52,425 nt of DNA, taken from the IMG/VR virus record IMGVR_UViG_3300012927_000008, positions 1 through 52,425 of that record. One strand, given 5' to 3'. Origin of the DNA: a virus. Below, piece by piece: positions 358 through 50,843 of this stretch. A program made the position numbers and the translations under genes. Position 1 is the stretch's first letter, and each line of letters opens with the position of its first letter. The notes beneath the pieces are model-generated. The model was given only the letters and a program-made list of their open reading frames with translations, searched no databases and was not told the origin of the DNA.

Positions 358-581
358 TGAAAGCGCATTACTTTGAGCTAGCCGAAGCCGATCAGGACGA
401 CTGGCAGTTAGGCATGGCAAAGATGCAGGGTTATGTTCCGCAAACATGCCTGCTCGGCGGTGTTGTCGTGATGGCCGAAGTATCGGCCGGCAGAAATCCA
501 TGTTGGGGTTGCGCGGGGCCACGGGCTCGGTGTCACGGGAAACCCATCTCCACTGTCGCGCGCGCGGAGGCGGGGGAGTGA
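357..581 (+). CDS. hypothetical small Cys-containing protein
   Basis: A 74-residue product. I chose the ATG at 357 because it overlaps the upstream stop, as is usual in this tightly packed early operon. The middle of the protein carries a CWGCAGPRARC stretch that could bind a metal; this is inference from cysteine spacing only. It ends in a 1-base overlap with the methyltransferase start at 581. No family was recognised. Confidence 0.6.
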   Translation: MKAHYFELAEADQDDWQLGMAKMQGYVPQTCLLGGVVVMAEVSAGRNPCWGCAGPRARCHGKPISTVARAEAGE

Positions 582-1447
582 TGGCGAAAATGCCCGCGTC
601 GTCCCGTCCGCTCCTCCGTTGGCATGGCGGCAAATGGCTCCTGGCGCCGTGGATCATCTCGCACTTTCCGCCGCATCGGACCTATGTCGAGCCGTTTGGT
701 GGAGCAGCCTCGGTCCTGATCCGCAAAGAGCGCTCCTATGCCGAGGTTTACAACGATCTCGACGATGACGTGGTGAACCTGTTTCGGGTGATCCGGGACG
801 ATGAGCAGTCGGAGGCACTCCACTTCGCCGTGCTGCACACACCGTTCGCCCGCACCGAATTTAATGAGGCTTATCTCCCGACGAACGATCCCGTCGAGAA
901 GGCGCGCCGGCTCATCATCCGGTCGTTCATGGGCTTCGGTTCGGGTGGGCATAACAACGCGCGCCCGACAGGCTTTCGCGCGAACAGCAATCGCTCAGGC
1001 ACCACGCCGGCCGGCGATTGGACGAACTACAATGAGGCGCTTGAACTGATCATATGGCGCGTTCGTGGCCTTGTAATCGAACATCGCCCGGCGATCGAGG
1101 TCATGGCCCAACAGGATCAGCCGACGACGCTGCACTACGTCGATCCGCCCTATGTCCACGCAACCAGGTCGAAGGCGAAAAACTCGACGCGGAAGAATTA
1201 CGCGCACGAGATGACGGATGACGATCACCGCAAGCTGCTCGACTTTCTGCCGACGCTCAAAGGTATGGTCGTCCTCTCCGGCTATCCGACACCGATGTAT
1301 GACCATGCCCTGACGGGCTGGGAGCGCGTCGAGCGTCTCGCACTGGCAGACGGTGCCCGCGAGCGCACCGAAGTCCTGTGGATCAACCAGCCGGCATCGG
1401 CGGCACGTCACATCGCTCAACCGTCATTTGCAGGAATCGCAGCATGA
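581..1447 (+). CDS. DNA adenine methyltransferase, Dam/D12 class
   Basis: A 288-residue N6-adenine methyltransferase of the alpha (D12, Dam-like) class. Near the N-terminus LLRWHGGKWLLAPWI matches the SAM-binding start of D12 enzymes, followed by EPFGGAASVL (motif I type). YVDPPY, around residue 188, is the catalytic motif IV. The start at 581 follows a GGGGGAGTG stretch and overlaps the previous stop; longer upstream ATGs in the same frame fall inside the preceding gene. There is no cognate restriction gene nearby, so it is best read as an orphan phage methylase that protects the genome or modifies regulation. The target sequence cannot be read from the DNA. Confidence 0.92.
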   Translation: MAKMPASSRPLLRWHGGKWLLAPWIISHFPPHRTYVEPFGGAASVLIRKERSYAEVYNDLDDDVVNLFRVIRDDEQSEALHFAVLHTPFARTEFNEAYLPTNDPVEKARRLIIRSFMGFGSGGHNNARPTGFRANSNRSGTTPAGDWTNYNEALELIIWRVRGLVIEHRPAIEVMAQQDQPTTLHYVDPPYVHATRSKAKNSTRKNYAHEMTDDDHRKLLDFLPTLKGMVVLSGYPTPMYDHALTGWERVERLALADGARERTEVLWINQPASAARHIAQPSFAGIAA

Positions 1448-1533: not shown

Positions 1534-1691
1534 GCAAGGCTGATACCTGCATTCCGCTCGGCATATGCACCGTCGCCGCCACTATGGTTTCCGGCGGCTG
1601 TGCACAGAATGGCGGTTATTTCGTCGCCATCGCCGCAGCACTTGTTGCCGCTGGCTTAGCGCTGTTTCTTGTTGTGGAGTACAAGCGATGA
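1530..1691 (+). CDS. small membrane protein, 53 aa
   Basis: The GTG start at 1530 overlaps the preceding stop and follows a GGAAGGGGG Shine-Dalgarno-like run. The C-terminal half (YFVAIAAALVAAGLALFLVV) is a clear transmembrane helix, followed by a basic tail EYKR. The N-terminal half has three Cys. No function can be assigned; small single-span proteins are common among phage early genes. Confidence 0.6.
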   Translation: MSKADTCIPLGICTVAATMVSGGCAQNGGYFVAIAAALVAAGLALFLVVEYKR

Positions 1692-2101
1692 GTGATCGCC
1701 AGGCCATCGCTGCGGCCGATCTCAAGGGATGCCCGTTTTGTGGGGGTGAGGGACTCGTCCATCGCGGCCCGTTTGGAGGCAGCGCTTTAGGCTGTTGGAT
1801 CTCGTGCGTGGGGACTGACTGTCACGTCGTACCGCGCGCAAAAGGGTCGGACGAAGCATCTGCAAGCGCGGCTTGGAACGCTCGGGTTGAACGCTGCGGG
1901 CCAGATGGTTCGCAGTCTGCCGTCATGGGCTGGCGGCCCATTTCGAGCAGCCCCATCCCTGAATATATTGATGTCGTTGTTGGCTGGTGGTTCTCGGCAC
2001 CTGGCATGGGGTCATCGTGGGAAACCGACACTGACATACTGAATGATTCAGCCACCCACTGGACGCCCCTACCATCCCCGCCAGCTTCGGGAGCGGTGTG
2101 A
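1688..2101 (+). CDS. Lar-like zinc ribbon fused to DUF551 domain
   Basis: A 137-residue product. The N-terminus has KGCPFCGGEGLVHRG and a later C-x4-C pair, the pattern of the Lar/restriction-alleviation zinc ribbon family. It ends in the typical ASASAAWNARV motif. The C-terminal part (MGWRPISSSP ... THWTPLPSPP) is a DUF551 domain. In both families members are small phage or prophage proteins. Rac Lar relieves type I restriction by modulating the modification activity, but I do not infer that activity here. Start 1688 overlaps the previous stop. Confidence 0.8.
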   Translation: MSDRQAIAAADLKGCPFCGGEGLVHRGPFGGSALGCWISCVGTDCHVVPRAKGSDEASASAAWNARVERCGPDGSQSAVMGWRPISSSPIPEYIDVVVGWWFSAPGMGSSWETDTDILNDSATHWTPLPSPPASGAV

Positions 2102-27461: not shown

Positions 27462-28568
27462 TCAAAGATGCGCGTTGGACCGAGCCTGCGCCTTCATGGC
27501 GAAAGCGGCGGCGTGGAGGTGAAGGATATTGAGACTGTTCGATTTTTTGGTGGTGACGATCTGGATGATTTCGGCATCCATGACGATGCCTTCCATTTGG
27601 GCGTCGGCGCTCTCGATGCCGGTCGGAGGACCGGCCTTGTCCCAAACACCTGCTGGACATATTGCGACGTGATCCAGCAGTGAGGGCTTCCCCTCTATCA
27701 ACATCACTTTGCCATCATCCAGCTTGATCCGTTCGTTCGCGGTCGGATCTGCGAAATTGACTGCAGGCGACGTAGACATGGGATTTTCCTGCATTTCCTT
27801 CGCCACATCATCATCGCGGATTTTAGCGATGCCCCAAACCTCATCGGGCTTGTCAGCGCGGAAATAAGGCAAGAATATCGCCCCGACCTTACGATCATGA
27901 AATTCATCGTGGTTGAGTAATGATTTCTCAGGATGCTCATAAATCACGTCAAGGCCATTGCAACGAGCAAGGAAATCATCGGTCATATAGATCGATGGAT
28001 CGCGCCAGCAAAACTCCTTGCGGTTATGTCGGTATGCGATGCCGGTCCCCGTGATCCTGATCGCGAACAGCCAGACATTCTCGTACCGTTGCGGGCTCGC
28101 GAGCTGGCCGGCCGCCATTGCGCGCGCTACGCCCAGTTCATCCATGTCGAGGCGATCGAGAGCCACACGGACACCGGGATGCAGGGGTTCTGGAGCGCCG
28201 CCTACGGGAGCCCAACTGTAGCCGTCATGTTCCGCCAGATCGAGTTTCGGCATGAACTGTTCGGGCAAGCGGCACAGGAAAGTCGAGAAGTCTACATCCT
28301 CGGGTTCTGCCGGCGCCTCACCCTCAATGGCCGGAACACCCATTTGCGCAGGAGCGATCGTGCGCGTCCACAGACGCAAATCCTTGGCCTCAACTTCAAT
28401 GTCGGCCTCTTCCAATGTCTCGCGGATCGCGGCCTGTTCGGCGGTCTCGTCGCCCTCTAGCTTGCCGCCGGGCAGGCACCAAAAATCGGGATAATCTCCG
28501 CCATTGCCCCTCCGCAGAAACAACGCGGTATCGCCAACCAGGAATAAAATGCCGGCAGCGCGGATCAC
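27462..28568 (-). CDS. Nudix hydrolase domain fused to DUF2213 head protein
   Basis: A 368-residue product. GTG 28568 starts VIRAAGILFLVGDTALFLRRG, as Nudix phage proteins begin. The frame upstream is only the reverse of tnpB. GKLEGDETAEQAAIRETLEEADI is a Nudix box (G-x5-E-x7-RE-x2-EE), with Asp in place of its last Gly. From about residue 160, RYENVWLFAIRITGTGIAYR ... GLDVIYEHPEKSLLN ... DHVAICPAGVWD matches DUF2213, a head-gene family proposed to contain the prohead protease. It thus combines predicted pyrophosphohydrolase and head maturation roles. It lies beside the scaffold-like gene and only 24 bases from the tnpB stop. Confidence 0.82.
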   Translation of the reverse strand: MIRAAGILFLVGDTALFLRRGNGGDYPDFWCLPGGKLEGDETAEQAAIRETLEEADIEVEAKDLRLWTRTIAPAQMGVPAIEGEAPAEPEDVDFSTFLCRLPEQFMPKLDLAEHDGYSWAPVGGAPEPLHPGVRVALDRLDMDELGVARAMAAGQLASPQRYENVWLFAIRITGTGIAYRHNRKEFCWRDPSIYMTDDFLARCNGLDVIYEHPEKSLLNHDEFHDRKVGAIFLPYFRADKPDEVWGIAKIRDDDVAKEMQENPMSTSPAVNFADPTANERIKLDDGKVMLIEGKPSLLDHVAICPAGVWDKAGPPTGIESADAQMEGIVMDAEIIQIVTTKKSNSLNILHLHAAAFAMKAQARSNAHL

Positions 28569-28591
28569 GACAAAGACTATCCCCCGAGGAT

Positions 28592-29724
28592 TTAGGCGGT
28601 TACTATTACCTTTGAACCGCCAAGGGAGCAAGTGGCACTTAATGCATCCATTTCCATGAAGGATTTGGCTCCCCCAACGGGAGGCTGGCACTCCAGCCCG
28701 ACACGGAGAATATTTCGAGCCGCATTGACGTCGCGATCGTGCGACGCCCCGCAGTCCGAACATTCCCAATGCCTCATTCCAAGCCCTGCGATACCTCTCG
28801 GCCTCGACGCTGGCAAAGAGCCGCACGCCGAACAGGTTTGGGAACTGTATCGCTCATCGGCCTCAATAAACACTGCTCCGTGCCTTCTGGCCTTGTACTG
28901 GAGCATATGCCGGAACGCCGACCAGCTTGCATCCAGAACGGATTTGGCCATTCTGGTTTTTGCAAGTTGGGCGGCGTTCACATCGCCGATAACGATCAAA
29001 CTATTTTCACGGGCAATCTTGGTGGATTGTTCGTGGAGGTGGTGCCGCCTGGAATTGGCGATCTTGGCATGGATGGCAATGACACGACGCCTATTGCGCG
29101 CTCGCTGGGCAATAGCGAGGATGGTTTCATACTGGCGGTAATGTTGAAGCGCTGGAATTTTACGGCCATCACTGAGCGTGGCGAGATCTTTAAGACCGAG
29201 GTCGATCCCGACGGCGTCACTACCGAGCGGCAGATCATCCATAACCTCGCATTGGAAGGTGACATACCAATGCCCGCGCGCATTTTGTACGAATGCACCA
29301 GCCTTGAACTCACCCCCGATCTCGCGGGATTTCCAGAATTGGAAGCGGCGCTTGAGATAGATCGCTGCATCCCCATCGACCTTAACGGCGCGCGGGATGA
29401 ACGGAATCCATCCGAGCGAGCGCTTTGAACCGAAACTAGTCCGGAAATTAGGGCATTTTTGTTATTATCTCTGGAGGTAATAAAATTACGACAAATTGTC
29501 TGAGCAGTATCAGAATGTATTCCAAGTTCAGATGCTGAACCTGTAACCAATTTTATCAAATCAAAGGATGCAGGTCGATAAATTTTACATCCAGCACGCC
29601 ATCTACGTTCATATTCGCGTTGCGTGGAAACACAGAAGTTCCATACTTGATTACAAGCTATGGCATGACGATTAAGATATTTATCTCCTCTCTTGACCCT
29701 GTACTTGAATGTGAGGATGCTCAC
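28592..29724 (-). pseudogene. tnpB: tnpB (IS200/IS605 OrfB-type RNA-guided nuclease), frameshifted
   Basis: The N-terminal part (from 29724: MSILTFKYRVKRGDKYLNRH ... NFITSRDNNK, 89 residues) is in one frame. After a run of five A on the coding strand (29456-29460) the homology continues in the -1 frame (KCPNFRTSFGSKRSLGWIPF ... to 28592). The joined product is about 377 residues, a normal TnpB length. Visible features are GIDLGLKDL (RuvC-I Asp), GDVNAAQLAKTRMAKSVLD where most TnpB have Glu, a CSACG ... CSDCG zinc ribbon, and HDRDVNAARNIL (RuvC-III Asp). No tnpA lies nearby. It is either a broken gene or one relying on frameshifting. Confidence 0.8.
28592..29724 (-). mobile_element. tnpB-only element (IS200/IS605 superfamily), ends not fully resolved
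   Basis: The tnpB gene stands alone between the rightward island and the Nudix-DUF2213 head gene. The right end probably lies near the hairpin at 28595-28621, which overlaps the tnpB stop region, as IS605-type right ends and guide RNAs do. The left end cannot be fixed by eye. Elements of this type lack terminal inverted repeats and target-site duplications. Confidence 0.6.
28595..28621 (-). repeat. hairpin at the 3' end of tnpB
   Basis: A perfect 7-bp stem GGCGGTT / AACCGCC with a 13-base loop covers the last codons of tnpB. In IS605-type elements a subterminal hairpin marks the end, and the guide (omega/re) RNA overlaps the tnpB 3' end. That role here is inference. Confidence 0.5.
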
Positions 29725-45401: not shown

Positions 45402-45912
45402 GGACGCCAAATCTCTTATTGGCGGCAATGCGCGCTTGGTCTACTATTGGATAAGGCACTCCACCATATTCGCCTATGGAGCCCCTAATAACTATTGAAA
45501 AATTCTGGCAATGACTTGTAATGAAAACATTATTACAGCCACATCCGGTAAATCCGACATCAATGATATATCTGCCGTGATGATAGGCTAAAATGTTAAA
45601 TTCTTCATTTGTCGATGGAGCGCCAATTGCTATCAGAACTGGACACCCCGTAGCAAGAGATAGGCGACATGCCAGTTTTTCTTCTCGAATATTAGGCTTT
45701 ATGCCTTTTACTTCTAGCCAAACATTTGCCGAAGGTATCCAAAAATCAGGAAGATACCATTCTCCACCAAGATCGAAACCCTCTGGTTCGTAGGTGAAAG
45801 ATACCTGGCATTCGTCAAGAAAAACGGCCCATCTCGCCTCTGTACGAGATCGATATTTTACACCTCTATATTCTGTCGGAAGTGGTTTGATCTTGTTAAT
45901 CATTTCGATCAT
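45394..45912 (-). CDS. PD-(D/E)XK nuclease-like protein
   Basis: A 172-residue product. YRGVKYRSRTEARWAVFLDECQVSFTYEPEGFDLGGEWYLPDFWIPSANVWLEVKG holds the spaced Glu, Asp (PDF) and E-x-K (EVKG) of the PD-(D/E)XK fold. Similar proteins occur in many phage replication regions, with unknown substrates. GGAG precedes ATG 45912, which lies within the upstream gene end. Confidence 0.75.
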   Translation of the reverse strand: MIEMINKIKPLPTEYRGVKYRSRTEARWAVFLDECQVSFTYEPEGFDLGGEWYLPDFWIPSANVWLEVKGIKPNIREEKLACRLSLATGCPVLIAIGAPSTNEEFNILAYHHGRYIIDVGFTGCGCNNVFITSHCQNFSIVIRGSIGEYGGVPYPIVDQARIAANKRFGVHE

Positions 45913-46201
45913 CTGACTCCGCCATCTTCAGCACGCCGTGCATAACGGTTGTGCGGTCACGGTTCATAATTTCGCCGATTTTGGTATAATTGAAACCGAT
46001 CCGGCGCAGTTCAGAATAAGCCTGCCAGCGCGGCAACACGAGGCGGCGCGAACGATCGTTGCTCAATAACTCGCGTAGCGGAATTTGATGTCGGCGCGCC
46101 ACTTGCTCAACGAGCTTTTGGGCATCATCAAGCGTAGGGCCAGAAGGCTTTGGTTCTGGCTTGTAACCGCAACATGGGCAAGCTAAATCAATCTCAGTCA
46201 T
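45896..46201 (-). CDS. DnaA domain IV-like protein with N-terminal zinc ribbon
   Basis: A 101-residue product. The N-terminus has CPCCGYKP. From residue 30, LVEQVARRHQIPLRELLSNDRSRRLVLPRWQAYSELRRIGFNYTKIGEIMNRDRTTVMHGVLKM follows the DnaA C-terminal (domain IV) HTH signature, with DRTTVMHG in place of DHSTVLHA. The AAA+ domain of DnaA is absent. It may bind DnaA-box-like sites at the phage origin. It lies in the replication operon. Confidence 0.82.
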   Translation of the reverse strand: MTEIDLACPCCGYKPEPKPSGPTLDDAQKLVEQVARRHQIPLRELLSNDRSRRLVLPRWQAYSELRRIGFNYTKIGEIMNRDRTTVMHGVLKMAESDDRND

Positions 46202-48121: not shown

Positions 48122-49300
48122 TCAGGTGATTTCGGCCGTGGCCTCATGCTCGATCGCCAGTTCCACGGCACGCCCCTCATCCCAGCGGCCGGCGACATTC
48201 TTGTCATCGGTCCACGCATCGGTCTCCGCCGTCAGCCATACCTGCTCAACCGGATCATAGACGACGTGCGTGGCGGCAGGTTCGTCCTCCACGATCTCAT
48301 CATCTTCCTCGACGCCGCCGAAACCTGCATCGGATGCACCGTCACCCGCCAGATCGGTATCGTCACCGGGATGATCGGGATTCGGGTCCGTGTCGGCGAT
48401 GCCGTATTCGCGCTTGCGTTTCTCGACGGCGGTTTCCTCGGCATCGGCAAAGGCAAGCTCCGGTTCCTCCGCCTCCACGGCCTCGCGCTTCACGCGATCA
48501 TAGGCGCTCCAGTCGGCTGGGACGATGATCACGTCCTGCCGCAGGCTGTCGTGCAGCGCGTTTTCGTCCTCGCGTGACGTGGTGGCGACATTGACCTCCA
48601 TCGTCAGCGTCATCTTTGCTCCGTCCGAACCGAGCTTCTTGAAATGCGCCGGGATGGAGGGGCGGTTCTTCGCCGCGACCGCGATTACCATTTCCTGGAT
48701 GATCTTCCGGCCTGCATAGTCGATTGCGGTGACGATATCGCGCTGTTCGGCCGGCGGCATCGCGACCCATGGTGAGCGACGATTCCGAAACAATTCCAAG
48801 ACTACGTCACGGAAGCTGCCAAGCAGTGCGGACTGGTCTGCGATATAGGCGTCGGCGATGTCAGAGAGGTGGTCGAGGTTCGCCTCATGGCCACGGTGCG
48901 TGCGGTCGGAAAGGTCATCAGAAGCGGTGTCGGCAGATGCCTCAACAGGGTCGGAAACGGCGGTTTCCTGCGAATCAGAGATGGTGCTCTCATCGGTCAT
49001 ATCGGCTTCCTCGCCGACAGGATCCGGTCCCGGCGTGTTATCTGCCTTGGGCGGACGGCCACGCTTTTTCTTCTCGGCCTTATGGTCCTCCGATAGGCCC
49101 ACAGCTAATTCGGCAAATACATTATCGTCCGACATTATTTTCTCCATGGTTGAAATATCAGCATATTCGCCGTCGCGATCGGCTTGTGCGTGCAGAAGCG
49201 CTTCGCCTATTCCGATGTCGGATTGCTGGGCGGCATGTTCGGTTGGGGTGCCGGTTCGGATCAGAGTTAGGAATTGGCGGAGTTGGGTTGAGCCTTTCAT
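48122..49300 (-). CDS. large acidic protein of unknown function with AT-hook-like motif
   Basis: A 392-residue product. ATG 49300 overlaps the methyltransferase stop (ATGA). After an N-terminal helical segment (STQLRQFLTLIRTGTPTEHAAQQSDIGIGEALLHA), KKRGRPPK is an AT-hook core. A conserved-looking middle follows (IADQSALLGSFRDVVLELFRNRRSPWVAMPPAEQRDIVTAIDYAGR). The C-terminal third is rich in Asp and Glu. Possibly a DNA-mimic or recombination-associated protein; no family was recognised. Confidence 0.65.
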   Translation of the reverse strand: MKGSTQLRQFLTLIRTGTPTEHAAQQSDIGIGEALLHAQADRDGEYADISTMEKIMSDDNVFAELAVGLSEDHKAEKKKRGRPPKADNTPGPDPVGEEADMTDESTISDSQETAVSDPVEASADTASDDLSDRTHRGHEANLDHLSDIADAYIADQSALLGSFRDVVLELFRNRRSPWVAMPPAEQRDIVTAIDYAGRKIIQEMVIAVAAKNRPSIPAHFKKLGSDGAKMTLTMEVNVATTSREDENALHDSLRQDVIIVPADWSAYDRVKREAVEAEEPELAFADAEETAVEKRKREYGIADTDPNPDHPGDDTDLAGDGASDAGFGGVEEDDEIVEDEPAATHVVYDPVEQVWLTAETDAWTDDKNVAGRWDEGRAVELAIEHEATAEIT

Positions 49301-49948
49301 GCGAACAGCCTTCCTTGTCGCAGTGCGGCCTCGATTCTCCGGCAAGCGATGTCGAAATAGCCCTCATCCAACTCAACGCCGATGGACGGACGGCCAAGTT
49401 CGTTAGCTGCGATGATCGTTGCGGCGGATCCCATAAAGGGATCTACTATGGTGCCGCGCGTCCATTCAATGATAGCACGCATCAGTTGCACGGGCTTCTC
49501 GGTCGGATGATGCTCATTACCGGTTCGTGGTGCCCGAATGACATCGGCCGGACGCGCTCTGGGAAAATCGTGCTGCGGGCCGGGATAGAATAGGATGCTC
49601 TCGGTTTGACGCCCATGCTCATGTTCAAGATCGCCCATTGAGTGATTGTCCTTGACCCAAGTCACCAAAGATTTTGGCTTCGGCACGGCAGTAAGATTAT
49701 CCCATCTACAGAATAGATAAGAGGAATGAGAAGGCCTTAGACCGCATGCCCAAAGCAATAACTCATCATCCTTGTCGTTTGCGATGGCAGCGTGCTTTTC
49801 GATTCGATAGTTTGAACGGAATGCCATTCCAAATGGCGGATCAGAGACTACGGCCCACATACCAAGCCCCCCCCCCTGCTATGTCAACCACATCGCGGCA
49901 ATCGGCTAAATGCAGGGTTGCAAGACCGATGGTCTCGATGCGGCTCAT
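49297..49948 (-). pseudogene. beta-class DNA methyltransferase, out of frame at a G10 tract
   Basis: The natural start ATG 49948 overlaps the stop of the partner gene (ATGA) and gives MSRIETIGLATLHLADCRDVVDIAG. A run of ten G (coding strand, 49876-49867) follows, and translation ends at 49841 after 35 residues. With nine G the frame runs on as GGGLGMWAVVSDPPFGMAF ... HHPTEKPVQLMRAIIEW ... DPFMGSAATIIAANELGRPSIGVELDEGYFDIACRRI, giving 216 residues. DPPF is motif IV and DPFMGS motif I, the beta-class order. An internal ATG at 49860 could still give a shortened protein. Confidence 0.85.
49867..49876 (-). repeat. G10 homopolymer in methyltransferase coding sequence
   Basis: Ten consecutive G on the coding strand, 24 codons after the start. 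Nine (or twelve) G restore the frame. Long G tracts of this kind are classic slipped-strand phase-variation switches in bacterial DNA methyltransferase genes; a sequencing error is the alternative. Confidence 0.8.
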
Positions 49949-50661
49949 CCGAACAAAACTCCTTGGCGTTGTGCATCTTCGATGCGCTTGCAGGCGACTG
50001 AGAACCATTTTTCGCACTGCTCTATGCCAATGAAACGACGTCCCTCAAGCATTGCGGCCACCCCTGTCGTCCCACTTCCCATGAAAGCATCGCAGATCAT
50101 CTGATCCGGATTGCTGTAGAGAGCGACAAGTTCGCGCATTAATCGCACGGGCTTTTCCGTAGGATGGCCGCCGGGCCGATCGCCGTTGACGTTGTGCGTG
50201 AAGACCCCACGACGTCCCCCCCCGTTCCATGAGCGATATCCCGGCGCACACCATGCGGTAACGGCGCACTCAAAACCGCGCGCAGCGCCTTGGCCGTTGA
50301 AACGCGGGGCAGAGTCTGGCTTCACCCAAGCAAGGCAGGTATCGTATTTCGCGCCCGCTGCCTGCAGATCGTCACGCCATGCTCGCACACCCTCGGCTAG
50401 AGTAAACAGGATAACCCAACCATTCGACGTCTCTACACAGAGTTTTGCGATGTCCGATCGCACGGCGTTGATGCCCGCGAAGCCAATATCTTCGATCATG
50501 GCCTGCCCATCGTTTCGCCGGATGCGGCCAATCGCGGCGTGCAGCTCGTCCTCATAAGGCGGGTCGCTGATGATATGGTCAACGCCCTGAATCGTCTGCA
50601 GAATATCCAGACAGTTGCCAAGATACAGCGTCGCATTGCCAATCACTTCCGTGCGGATCAT
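49945..50661 (-). CDS. beta-class DNA methyltransferase
   Basis: A 238-residue product. ATG 50661 overlaps the Cro-like gene stop (ATGA). DHIISDPPYEDELHAA holds motif IV (DPPY). GHPTEKPVRLMRELV and CDAFMGSGTTGVAAMLEGRRFIGIEQCEKWFSVACKRI hold motifs I and X at the C-terminus, the beta-class order (N6-adenine or N4-cytosine). It is paralogous to the next gene (HPTEKPVxLMR). A run of eight G lies in the codons for WNGGGRRG, in frame here. Confidence 0.9.
   Translation of the reverse strand: MIRTEVIGNATLYLGNCLDILQTIQGVDHIISDPPYEDELHAAIGRIRRNDGQAMIEDIGFAGINAVRSDIAKLCVETSNGWVILFTLAEGVRAWRDDLQAAGAKYDTCLAWVKPDSAPRFNGQGAARGFECAVTAWCAPGYRSWNGGGRRGVFTHNVNGDRPGGHPTEKPVRLMRELVALYSNPDQMICDAFMGSGTTGVAAMLEGRRFIGIEQCEKWFSVACKRIEDAQRQGVLFG
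50216..50223 (-). repeat. G8 homopolymer in methyltransferase coding sequence
   Basis: Eight G on the coding strand encode part of NGGGRR in the first methyltransferase. The frame is intact at eight. It is the second long G run in this tandem gene pair. Confidence 0.7.
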
Positions 50662-50843
50662 GCCAGCCATGCCTCGGTCTTGACGGCTCCGCGCGTCGCA
50701 ATCTCAATCTGATGAGCCATTTCTAGCGATGGCCTCAGTTTTCCACTGACAAGACGCGAAACCGTCGCAGGCGTTGTTCCAAGCGTGAGAGCAAAATCGC
50801 GCTGCTTGATGCGGCGCTCCGCCAAATATGATTTGAGGTTCAT
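50658..50843 (-). CDS. Cro/CI-like HTH repressor, small
   Basis: A 61-residue product. LKSYLAERRIKQRDFALTLGTTPATVSRLVSGKLRPSLEMAHQIEIATRGAV is a complete XRE/Cro helix-turn-helix fold. It is read leftward from the divergent control region, and the inverted repeat at 50857-50897 lies just upstream of its start. It probably represses its own and the opposing promoter. Confidence 0.85.
   Translation of the reverse strand: MNLKSYLAERRIKQRDFALTLGTTPATVSRLVSGKLRPSLEMAHQIEIATRGAVKTEAWLA

What the first reader, a model, noticed from the sequence alone, without database searches (positions are those of the whole stretch)
49867..49876. G10 tract puts a phage DNA methyltransferase out of frame: possible phase-variable methylation
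The gene starts at 49948, coupled to its partner. After 24 codons it meets ten G, and the frame then stops at 49841. One G fewer joins MSRIETIGLATLHLADCRD exactly to the catalytic DPPF and the rest of an intact enzyme. Long G tracts in methyltransferase genes are known switches (phasevarions) in bacteria; on a phage genome this would vary the modification of virion DNA or host promoters. The run also looks like a ribosome site for the internal ATG at 49860.
Basis: partly seen in the sequence, partly recalled or inferred. Interest (0 to 1): 0.8.

Follow-up and report, generated by a model that had tools for sequence, protein, structure and literature searches.

The report
Poly-G switch in phage DNA methyltransferase
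A run of ten G bases puts a phage DNA-methylating enzyme out of frame, and the same kind of run sits at the same spot in many unrelated phage enzymes, sometimes with different lengths in almost identical phages, so it probably works as a random on/off switch for DNA methylation, although switching was not seen in this phage itself.

Summary
A G10 tract (49867-49876, minus strand) splits a beta-class N6/N4 DNA methyltransferase after codon 24; the frame stops at 49841. A tract one G shorter joins the N-terminus to the catalytic DPPF and an intact enzyme, aligning with 21 tract-free homologues plus three glycines. A structure model puts these in a loop just before motif IV.

For this virus only G10 is known: one other record, the same virus, also has G10. 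The class is strongly supported. At least 119 viral stretches carry G9-G13 5-35 nt before a DPPYG motif, against 13 at 65-95 nt and 6 for C9. They fall into 91 lineages, about half out of frame with undamaged downstream ORFs. Two contigs from different samples, differing by 3 substitutions in 4.5 kb, differ in both of their long poly-G tracts.

Best explanation: a phage-borne contingency locus switching methylation on and off by slippage. Assembly error, decay, internal start and programmed slippage are less likely. I found no paper describing such tracts in phages, but the search was limited. Switching and methylation remain unshown.

The parts
49867..49876 (-). G10 homopolymer tract inside the methyltransferase gene (the proposed switch)
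   Evidence: only G/C run of 9 or more in the window; expected number of runs of 10 or more is 0.014-0.033 (Markov order 2-4)
49841..49948 (-). N-terminal part of the methyltransferase as encoded with G10: 35 aa, start ATG overlapping the partner's stop, ends at TGA 49843-49841
49297..49860 (-). C-terminal part of the beta-class N6/N4 methyltransferase (187 aa from internal ATG 49860), with DPPF (motif IV), the HPTEKP block and DPFMGSA (motif I)
   Evidence: PF01555 E 1.6e-17; phrog_67 DNA methyltransferase E 2e-33; best solved relatives M1.HpyAVI, M.BceJIV, CcrM
49945..50670 (-). Partner methyltransferase, intact and in frame, same family (phrog_67), overlapping the start of the switched gene by ATGA
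   Evidence: PF01555 E 4e-22; phrog_67 E 5e-44
50216..50223 (-). G8 run in the partner gene, in frame, encoding the Gly of a WNGGG motif; probably coding constraint rather than a second switch
446..1447 (+). Third DNA methyltransferase of the virus, D12 (Dam-like) class; context
   Evidence: PF02086 E 6e-20; phrog_56 E 2e-65
1565..2101 (+). Lar-like restriction alleviation protein; context showing investment in anti-restriction
   Evidence: PF14354 E 6e-8

Best explanation
The G10 tract is a contingency (phase-variation) tract. Shown: with G10 the gene makes a 35-aa stub, and the rest of the enzyme is intact in another frame. Shown: the joined enzyme aligns with homologues plus three glycines in a loop between the helix after motif III and the strand leading to catalytic motif IV. 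Shown in other phages: poly-G tracts recur at this place, are about half in and half out of frame, and differ in length between nearly identical phages. Inferred: replication slippage in the tract switches the enzyme ON (tract length a multiple of three, such as 9) and OFF (10, 11), so each burst contains virions with different methylation. The intact partner, a Dam-like enzyme and a Lar-like protein supply constitutive anti-restriction. The switched enzyme would be a bet-hedge, useful against hosts whose restriction is blocked by its mark and harmful against hosts with methyl-dependent (type IV) restriction. The target motif and the benefit are unknown.
For: Frame anatomy. Homologues and three-residue insertion. 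Loop position: model pLDDT 82; helix 17-24, loop with GGG at 25-27, strand 32-35. No general decay: the window protein departs from only 2 otherwise invariant residues, like its peers. Complete control scans gave 13 at 65-95 nt, 6 for C9 at 5-35 nt and 52 for G9 just 3' of the motif, many of these also frame-breaking. There are 91 lineages at 90% nt identity: 45 OFF, 38 ON, 2 mixed; the tract-to-motif gap peaks at 21-24 nt, and the window's is 24. OFF copies are as open downstream as ON copies (median 216 vs 207 codons). Natural length variation: L081 vs L183, different samples, 4.5 kb, 3 substitutions; 2 of 3 indels fall in the two long poly-G tracts, G10/G9 and G9/G10. Isolate prophages with G9, G10 and G11.
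Against: Only one tract length (G10) is known for this virus, in two records that are the same virus and may share reads. No homologue at 76% identity or below carries a tract and none closer was found, so the history of this tract cannot be traced. Motif I reads DPFMGSA where the 16 closest homologues end this motif in GSG, so the enzyme could be weakened even in frame. Methylation was not observed. The 52 hits 3' of the motif show that the position is not unique; poly-G tracts gather on both sides of motif IV. In the best-matched pair (L081/L183) both tract lengths leave the gene out of frame by the heuristic used, so that pair shows mutability rather than an ON/OFF switch.
Confidence: 0.7

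Rival explanations
1. Assembly or sequencing error: the true tract is G9 and the gene is simply intact.
For: Homopolymers are the commonest indel site in assemblies. The window assembly has another suspicious length difference: a 22-bp tandem repeat with one copy fewer than in the other record, which breaks a replication protein.
Against: Two records of the virus, differing in that repeat, both give G10. Errors cannot explain why such tracts cluster 5-35 nt before motif IV (at least 119) rather than at 65-95 nt (13). Even with G9 the tract would remain as a likely hypermutable site.
Confidence: 0.1
2. Plain decay: a neutral frameshift has killed a redundant methyltransferase (the partner and a Dam-like enzyme remain).
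For: Out of frame in both records; motif I G to A change at a position invariant in the 16 closest homologues.
Against: 187 codons after the break are open, and only 2 otherwise invariant residues have changed, no more than in peers. In the class, OFF copies are as intact downstream as ON copies, and tract lengths move in nature.
Confidence: 0.1
3. Programmed slippage: RNA polymerase or the ribosome slips on the G run, so both products are made from one fixed G10 genome.
For: Long G runs are slippery. OFF copies in the class are mostly one G too many (48 vs 7), although the G9 search threshold favours that bias.
Against: A programmed site should keep one fixed out-of-frame state; instead 38 lineages are in frame and 45 out, and length differs between near-identical phages.
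Confidence: 0.06
4. Internal start: the G run is the ribosome-binding site for ATG 49860, and a 187-aa enzyme is the real product.
For: G run 6 nt from an ATG, overlapping the stop of the upstream frame, a layout that would allow reinitiation.
Against: All 21 aligned homologues keep the N-terminal residues, including the invariant Asp (D16) of the GDC/ADC motif, which this product would lack. Most other tract-bearing genes show no ATG at this place.
Confidence: 0.04

Closest known systems
Phase-variable bacterial DNA methyltransferases (phasevarions), e.g. type III Mod of Haemophilus, Neisseria and Helicobacter, and type IIG Cj0031 of Campylobacter jejuni with a poly-G tract (PMC4889913, PMC12003011)
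   Same: Simple repeat inside a methyltransferase ORF; a one-base change moves the gene between full length and truncated.
   Different: Those are chromosomal genes of restriction-modification systems; this is an orphan-type enzyme on a phage, with the tract between motif III and motif IV. Switching has not been measured here.
Prophage methyltransferase M.Btr192IV / M.Btr189ORF5700P of Bibersteinia trehalosi, with 12 CAAG copies 63 bp after the start codon (PMC4996451)
   Same: Phage-borne orphan adenine methyltransferase with a frame-changing repeat near the 5' end; the closest published precedent found.
   Different: Tetranucleotide repeat in a different, non-specific enzyme; the paper found it unexpressed in its native host and called the repeat's significance unclear.
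PHROG 67 phage DNA methyltransferases / Pfam PF01555 beta-class enzymes (M1.HpyAVI, M.BceJIV, CcrM as solved relatives)
   Same: Family membership by profile, motif order and fold.
   Different: The aligned homologues lack the poly-G and its three-glycine insertion.

Membership tests
Beta-class N6/N4 DNA methyltransferase (PF01555) | Profile match above curated cut-off | tested here: met
   64.7 bits against a cut-off of 26.7 for the part after the tract
Beta-class N6/N4 DNA methyltransferase (PF01555) | Motif IV (DPPY/F) before motif I (FxGxG), Rossmann-type fold | tested here: met
   DPPF at 36-39 and DPFMGSA at 169-175 of the read-through; Foldseek hits to M1.HpyAVI and M.BceJIV, E about 1e-12. 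The last Gly of motif I is Ala
Phase-variable DNA methyltransferase | Simple sequence repeat within the ORF whose unit is not a multiple of three | tested here: met
   G10 after codon 24
Phase-variable DNA methyltransferase | Intact coding sequence restored by a tract-length change | tested here: met
   Read-through aligns along its length with homologues
Phase-variable DNA methyltransferase | Tract length varies between individuals: this virus | tested here: inconclusive
   Two records of the same virus, both G10
Phase-variable DNA methyltransferase | Tract length varies between individuals: same class in other phages | tested here: met
   L081/L183, 4.5 kb with 3 substitutions, differ in both long G tracts; further variable clusters
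Phase-variable DNA methyltransferase | ON and OFF states differ in DNA methylation | not testable with these tools
   Needs long-read methylomes or enzyme assays
Phasevarion | Switching changes expression of a set of genes | not testable with these tools
   Needs transcriptomes of ON and OFF variants

The most novel reading that the evidence does not exclude
Phages of many lineages have repeatedly evolved poly-G contingency tracts around the catalytic motif of their own DNA methyltransferases, so that virion populations carry mixed DNA modification states: phage-encoded epigenetic bet-hedging against host restriction, with the window as one case.
Probability: 0.5. Interest if true: 0.8.

Novelty: new variant of a known kind. 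Interest (0 to 1): 0.62.

Why it matters
Phase-variable methylation is studied almost entirely as a bacterial trait. If phages use the same trick on their own modification enzymes, a clonal phage stock is epigenetically mixed, which would change how restriction, host range and phage-host co-evolution are measured. Annotation pipelines would also be miscalling many phage methyltransferases as pseudogenes or truncated genes. The tracts give a directly testable set of loci.

Tried and rejected
Nearest relatives by protein: 48 viral loci; among those whose region before DPPY could be read, none has a tract except the same virus. A DNA pattern across the tract allowing a range of tract lengths found only the same virus. 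DNA similarity in the phage collection: no match for the region. Named phages near tract-bearing loci: none close; the two Porphyromonas phage methyltransferases fetched are annotated as single CDSs. A second switch in the partner (G8) was considered and rejected as coding constraint.

The bare count of 119 hits was first suspected to be chance, given the size of the collection; the positional and C-run controls answered that, though the 52 hits 3' of the motif weaken the claim of one unique site. Tracts lying at contig ends (for example L118, L142, L167, L201) were given little weight.

A read-through with the word GCAG shifted frame a second time, and GCTT did so near the C-terminus, so the fold used only residues 1-200. 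Ten literature searches and targeted reading found no description of poly-G tracts in phage methyltransferases; the library holds open-licence PMC papers only, so this is weak evidence of novelty.

Full report
WHAT IS THERE. The window is a whole 52,425-bp virus record with portal, terminase, tail sheath, tape measure, baseplate and tail fibre genes, so a contractile-tailed phage. At its right end, on the minus strand, an intact DNA methyltransferase (49945-50670) overlaps by ATGA a second one that starts at 49948. After 24 codons the second gene meets ten G (49876-49867), and its frame ends at 49841 after 35 aa. The rest of the enzyme, with DPPF and all later motifs, is open in the frame reached by one G fewer. 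The finding is correct in every coordinate. G10 is the only G/C run of 9 or more in the window. Markov models of order 2-4 expect 0.014-0.033 runs of 10 or more; order 1 expects 0.13.

WHAT THE GENE IS. The part after the tract matches PF01555 (E 1.6e-17) and PHROG 67. The joined protein folds like M1.HpyAVI, M.BceJIV and CcrM. It aligns with 21 tract-free phage homologues (32-71% identity in alignment A2; the 16 closest are compared) except for three extra residues, matching the three glycines written by nine G. In the model (mean pLDDT 82) these lie in the loop between helix 17-24, after the GDC/ADC motif, and strand 32-35, which leads into DPPF. That is a place where extra glycines can plausibly be tolerated. 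The protein departs from only two otherwise invariant residues among 17 sequences, no worse than its peers. One of the two is the last glycine of motif I (DPFMGSA), a reservation about activity.

IS THE TRACT AN ARTEFACT OR A PRIVATE ACCIDENT? For this virus I found one other record (70,695 bp). Over the compared stretches, window 25409-52425, it is identical apart from one 22-bp repeat copy, and it also has G10. It is the same virus and not an independent sample. A pattern spanning the tract with a range of lengths found nothing else.

THE CLASS. I then asked whether such tracts recur. Nearly all are real methyltransferases, with the tract between a GD(S/C/A) motif and DPPY. Completed controls gave 13 stretches for G9 at 65-95 nt upstream, 6 for C9 at 5-35 nt upstream and 52 for G9 within 5-35 nt downstream. 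The downstream hits are mostly also methyltransferases, with the tract in a loop after DPPYG and often frame-breaking. Poly-G tracts thus gather around motif IV, most strongly just before it; the tract-to-motif gap peaks at 21-24 nt, and the window has 24. Elsewhere in the same loci G9 or more is rare: 13 in 1.05 Mb, and none in 0.47 Mb of loci not chosen for tracts. There are fewer G8 runs (5) than G9-or-longer runs, which is not the shape of a chance tail. Some of the 13 lie in other methyltransferase-like genes.

FRAME STATE. Of 119 tracts, 54 are in frame, 55 out of frame and 10 unassigned. In lineages (90% nt identity) the split is 38 ON, 45 OFF, 2 mixed, 6 unassigned out of 91. ON exceeds the one third expected from random frames (38 of 83, two-sided p 0.02). 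OFF genes are as open downstream as ON genes (medians 216 and 207 codons), so they show no sign of decay. OFF-by-one-too-many (48) outnumbers one-too-few (7), at least partly because the search requires nine G. The ON/OFF call rests on a motif heuristic.

DIRECT LENGTH VARIATION. L081 and L183 come from different samples and align over 4.5 kb with 3 substitutions and 3 single-base indels. Two of the three indels are exactly the two long poly-G tracts (G10/G9 and G9/G10), the first being the tract before DPPY. By the frame heuristic both lengths of that first tract are OFF, so the pair shows mutability rather than a caught ON/OFF switch. Other clusters with different lengths on near-identical flanks are five isolate prophages with G9, G10 or G11 (95-98% flanks, both in-frame and out-of-frame members), L221/L238 (G10/G9), and L167 against L255/L273 (G9/G13; L167 lies near a contig end). 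In 84,980 prokaryote genomes the same pattern occurs only 28 times, about half of these in recognisable methyltransferases, mostly out of frame.

MECHANISM. The most economical reading is slipped-strand phase variation of a phage methyltransferase. Anatomy, class-wide position preference, the frame mixture without decay, and length differences in nature are shown. Switching in this virus, methylation and benefit are inferred. The phage also carries an intact partner methyltransferase, a D12 (Dam-like) methyltransferase and a Lar-like restriction alleviation protein, so anti-restriction is the likely setting. A switchable mark would let part of each burst survive restriction that the mark blocks, and another part survive restriction that attacks methylated DNA (inference from established knowledge of type I-III and type IV restriction).

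KNOWN OR NEW. Phase-variable methyltransferases are well known in bacteria (PMC12003011, PMC4889913), and one prophage methyltransferase with CAAG repeats is on record (PMC4996451). A paper on phage-encoded methyltransferases in the human gut phagenome mentions neither phase variation nor homopolymers (PMC10477858). I found no paper describing poly-G contingency tracts as a recurrent feature of phage methyltransferases, but most subscription journals were not searchable. I rate it a new variant of a known kind.

Noticed in passing
window 44844 (G001 has one extra 22-bp copy, TTGTTGCGCGTGACATTCTCCG): A 22-bp tandem repeat with one copy fewer in the window breaks a replication-protein-like gene into two frames; the other record of the virus has a single 365-codon ORF. 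It may be an assembly collapse, real variation, or origin iterons inside the gene.
   Followed up: partly
L139:10533-10541 and L142:841-849; L214 (minus strand, 11203): G9 tracts also interrupt what look like C5-cytosine methyltransferases (for example GYKLCGCDVIGCCEID after the tract), so the switch may extend to other methyltransferase classes.
   Followed up: no
L081:3891-3899, L174:1190-1199, L183:7727-7736: A second variable poly-G tract (G9/G10) about 840 bp after the methyltransferase tract, before an ORF starting EHMPETITRKEYEAVRENKERYPEW; it varies between samples too.
   Followed up: partly
L192-L243: 52 viral stretches, mostly methyltransferases, with G9-G17 just after DPPYG, a good part of them out of frame.
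   Followed up: partly
window 45899-46201: A small protein with a DnaA C-terminal helix-turn-helix domain (PF08299, E 2e-11) next to the replication gene.
   Followed up: no
window 27465-28826: A 454-aa phage protein with a NUDIX domain (PF00293) and a weak match to a portal profile.
   Followed up: no
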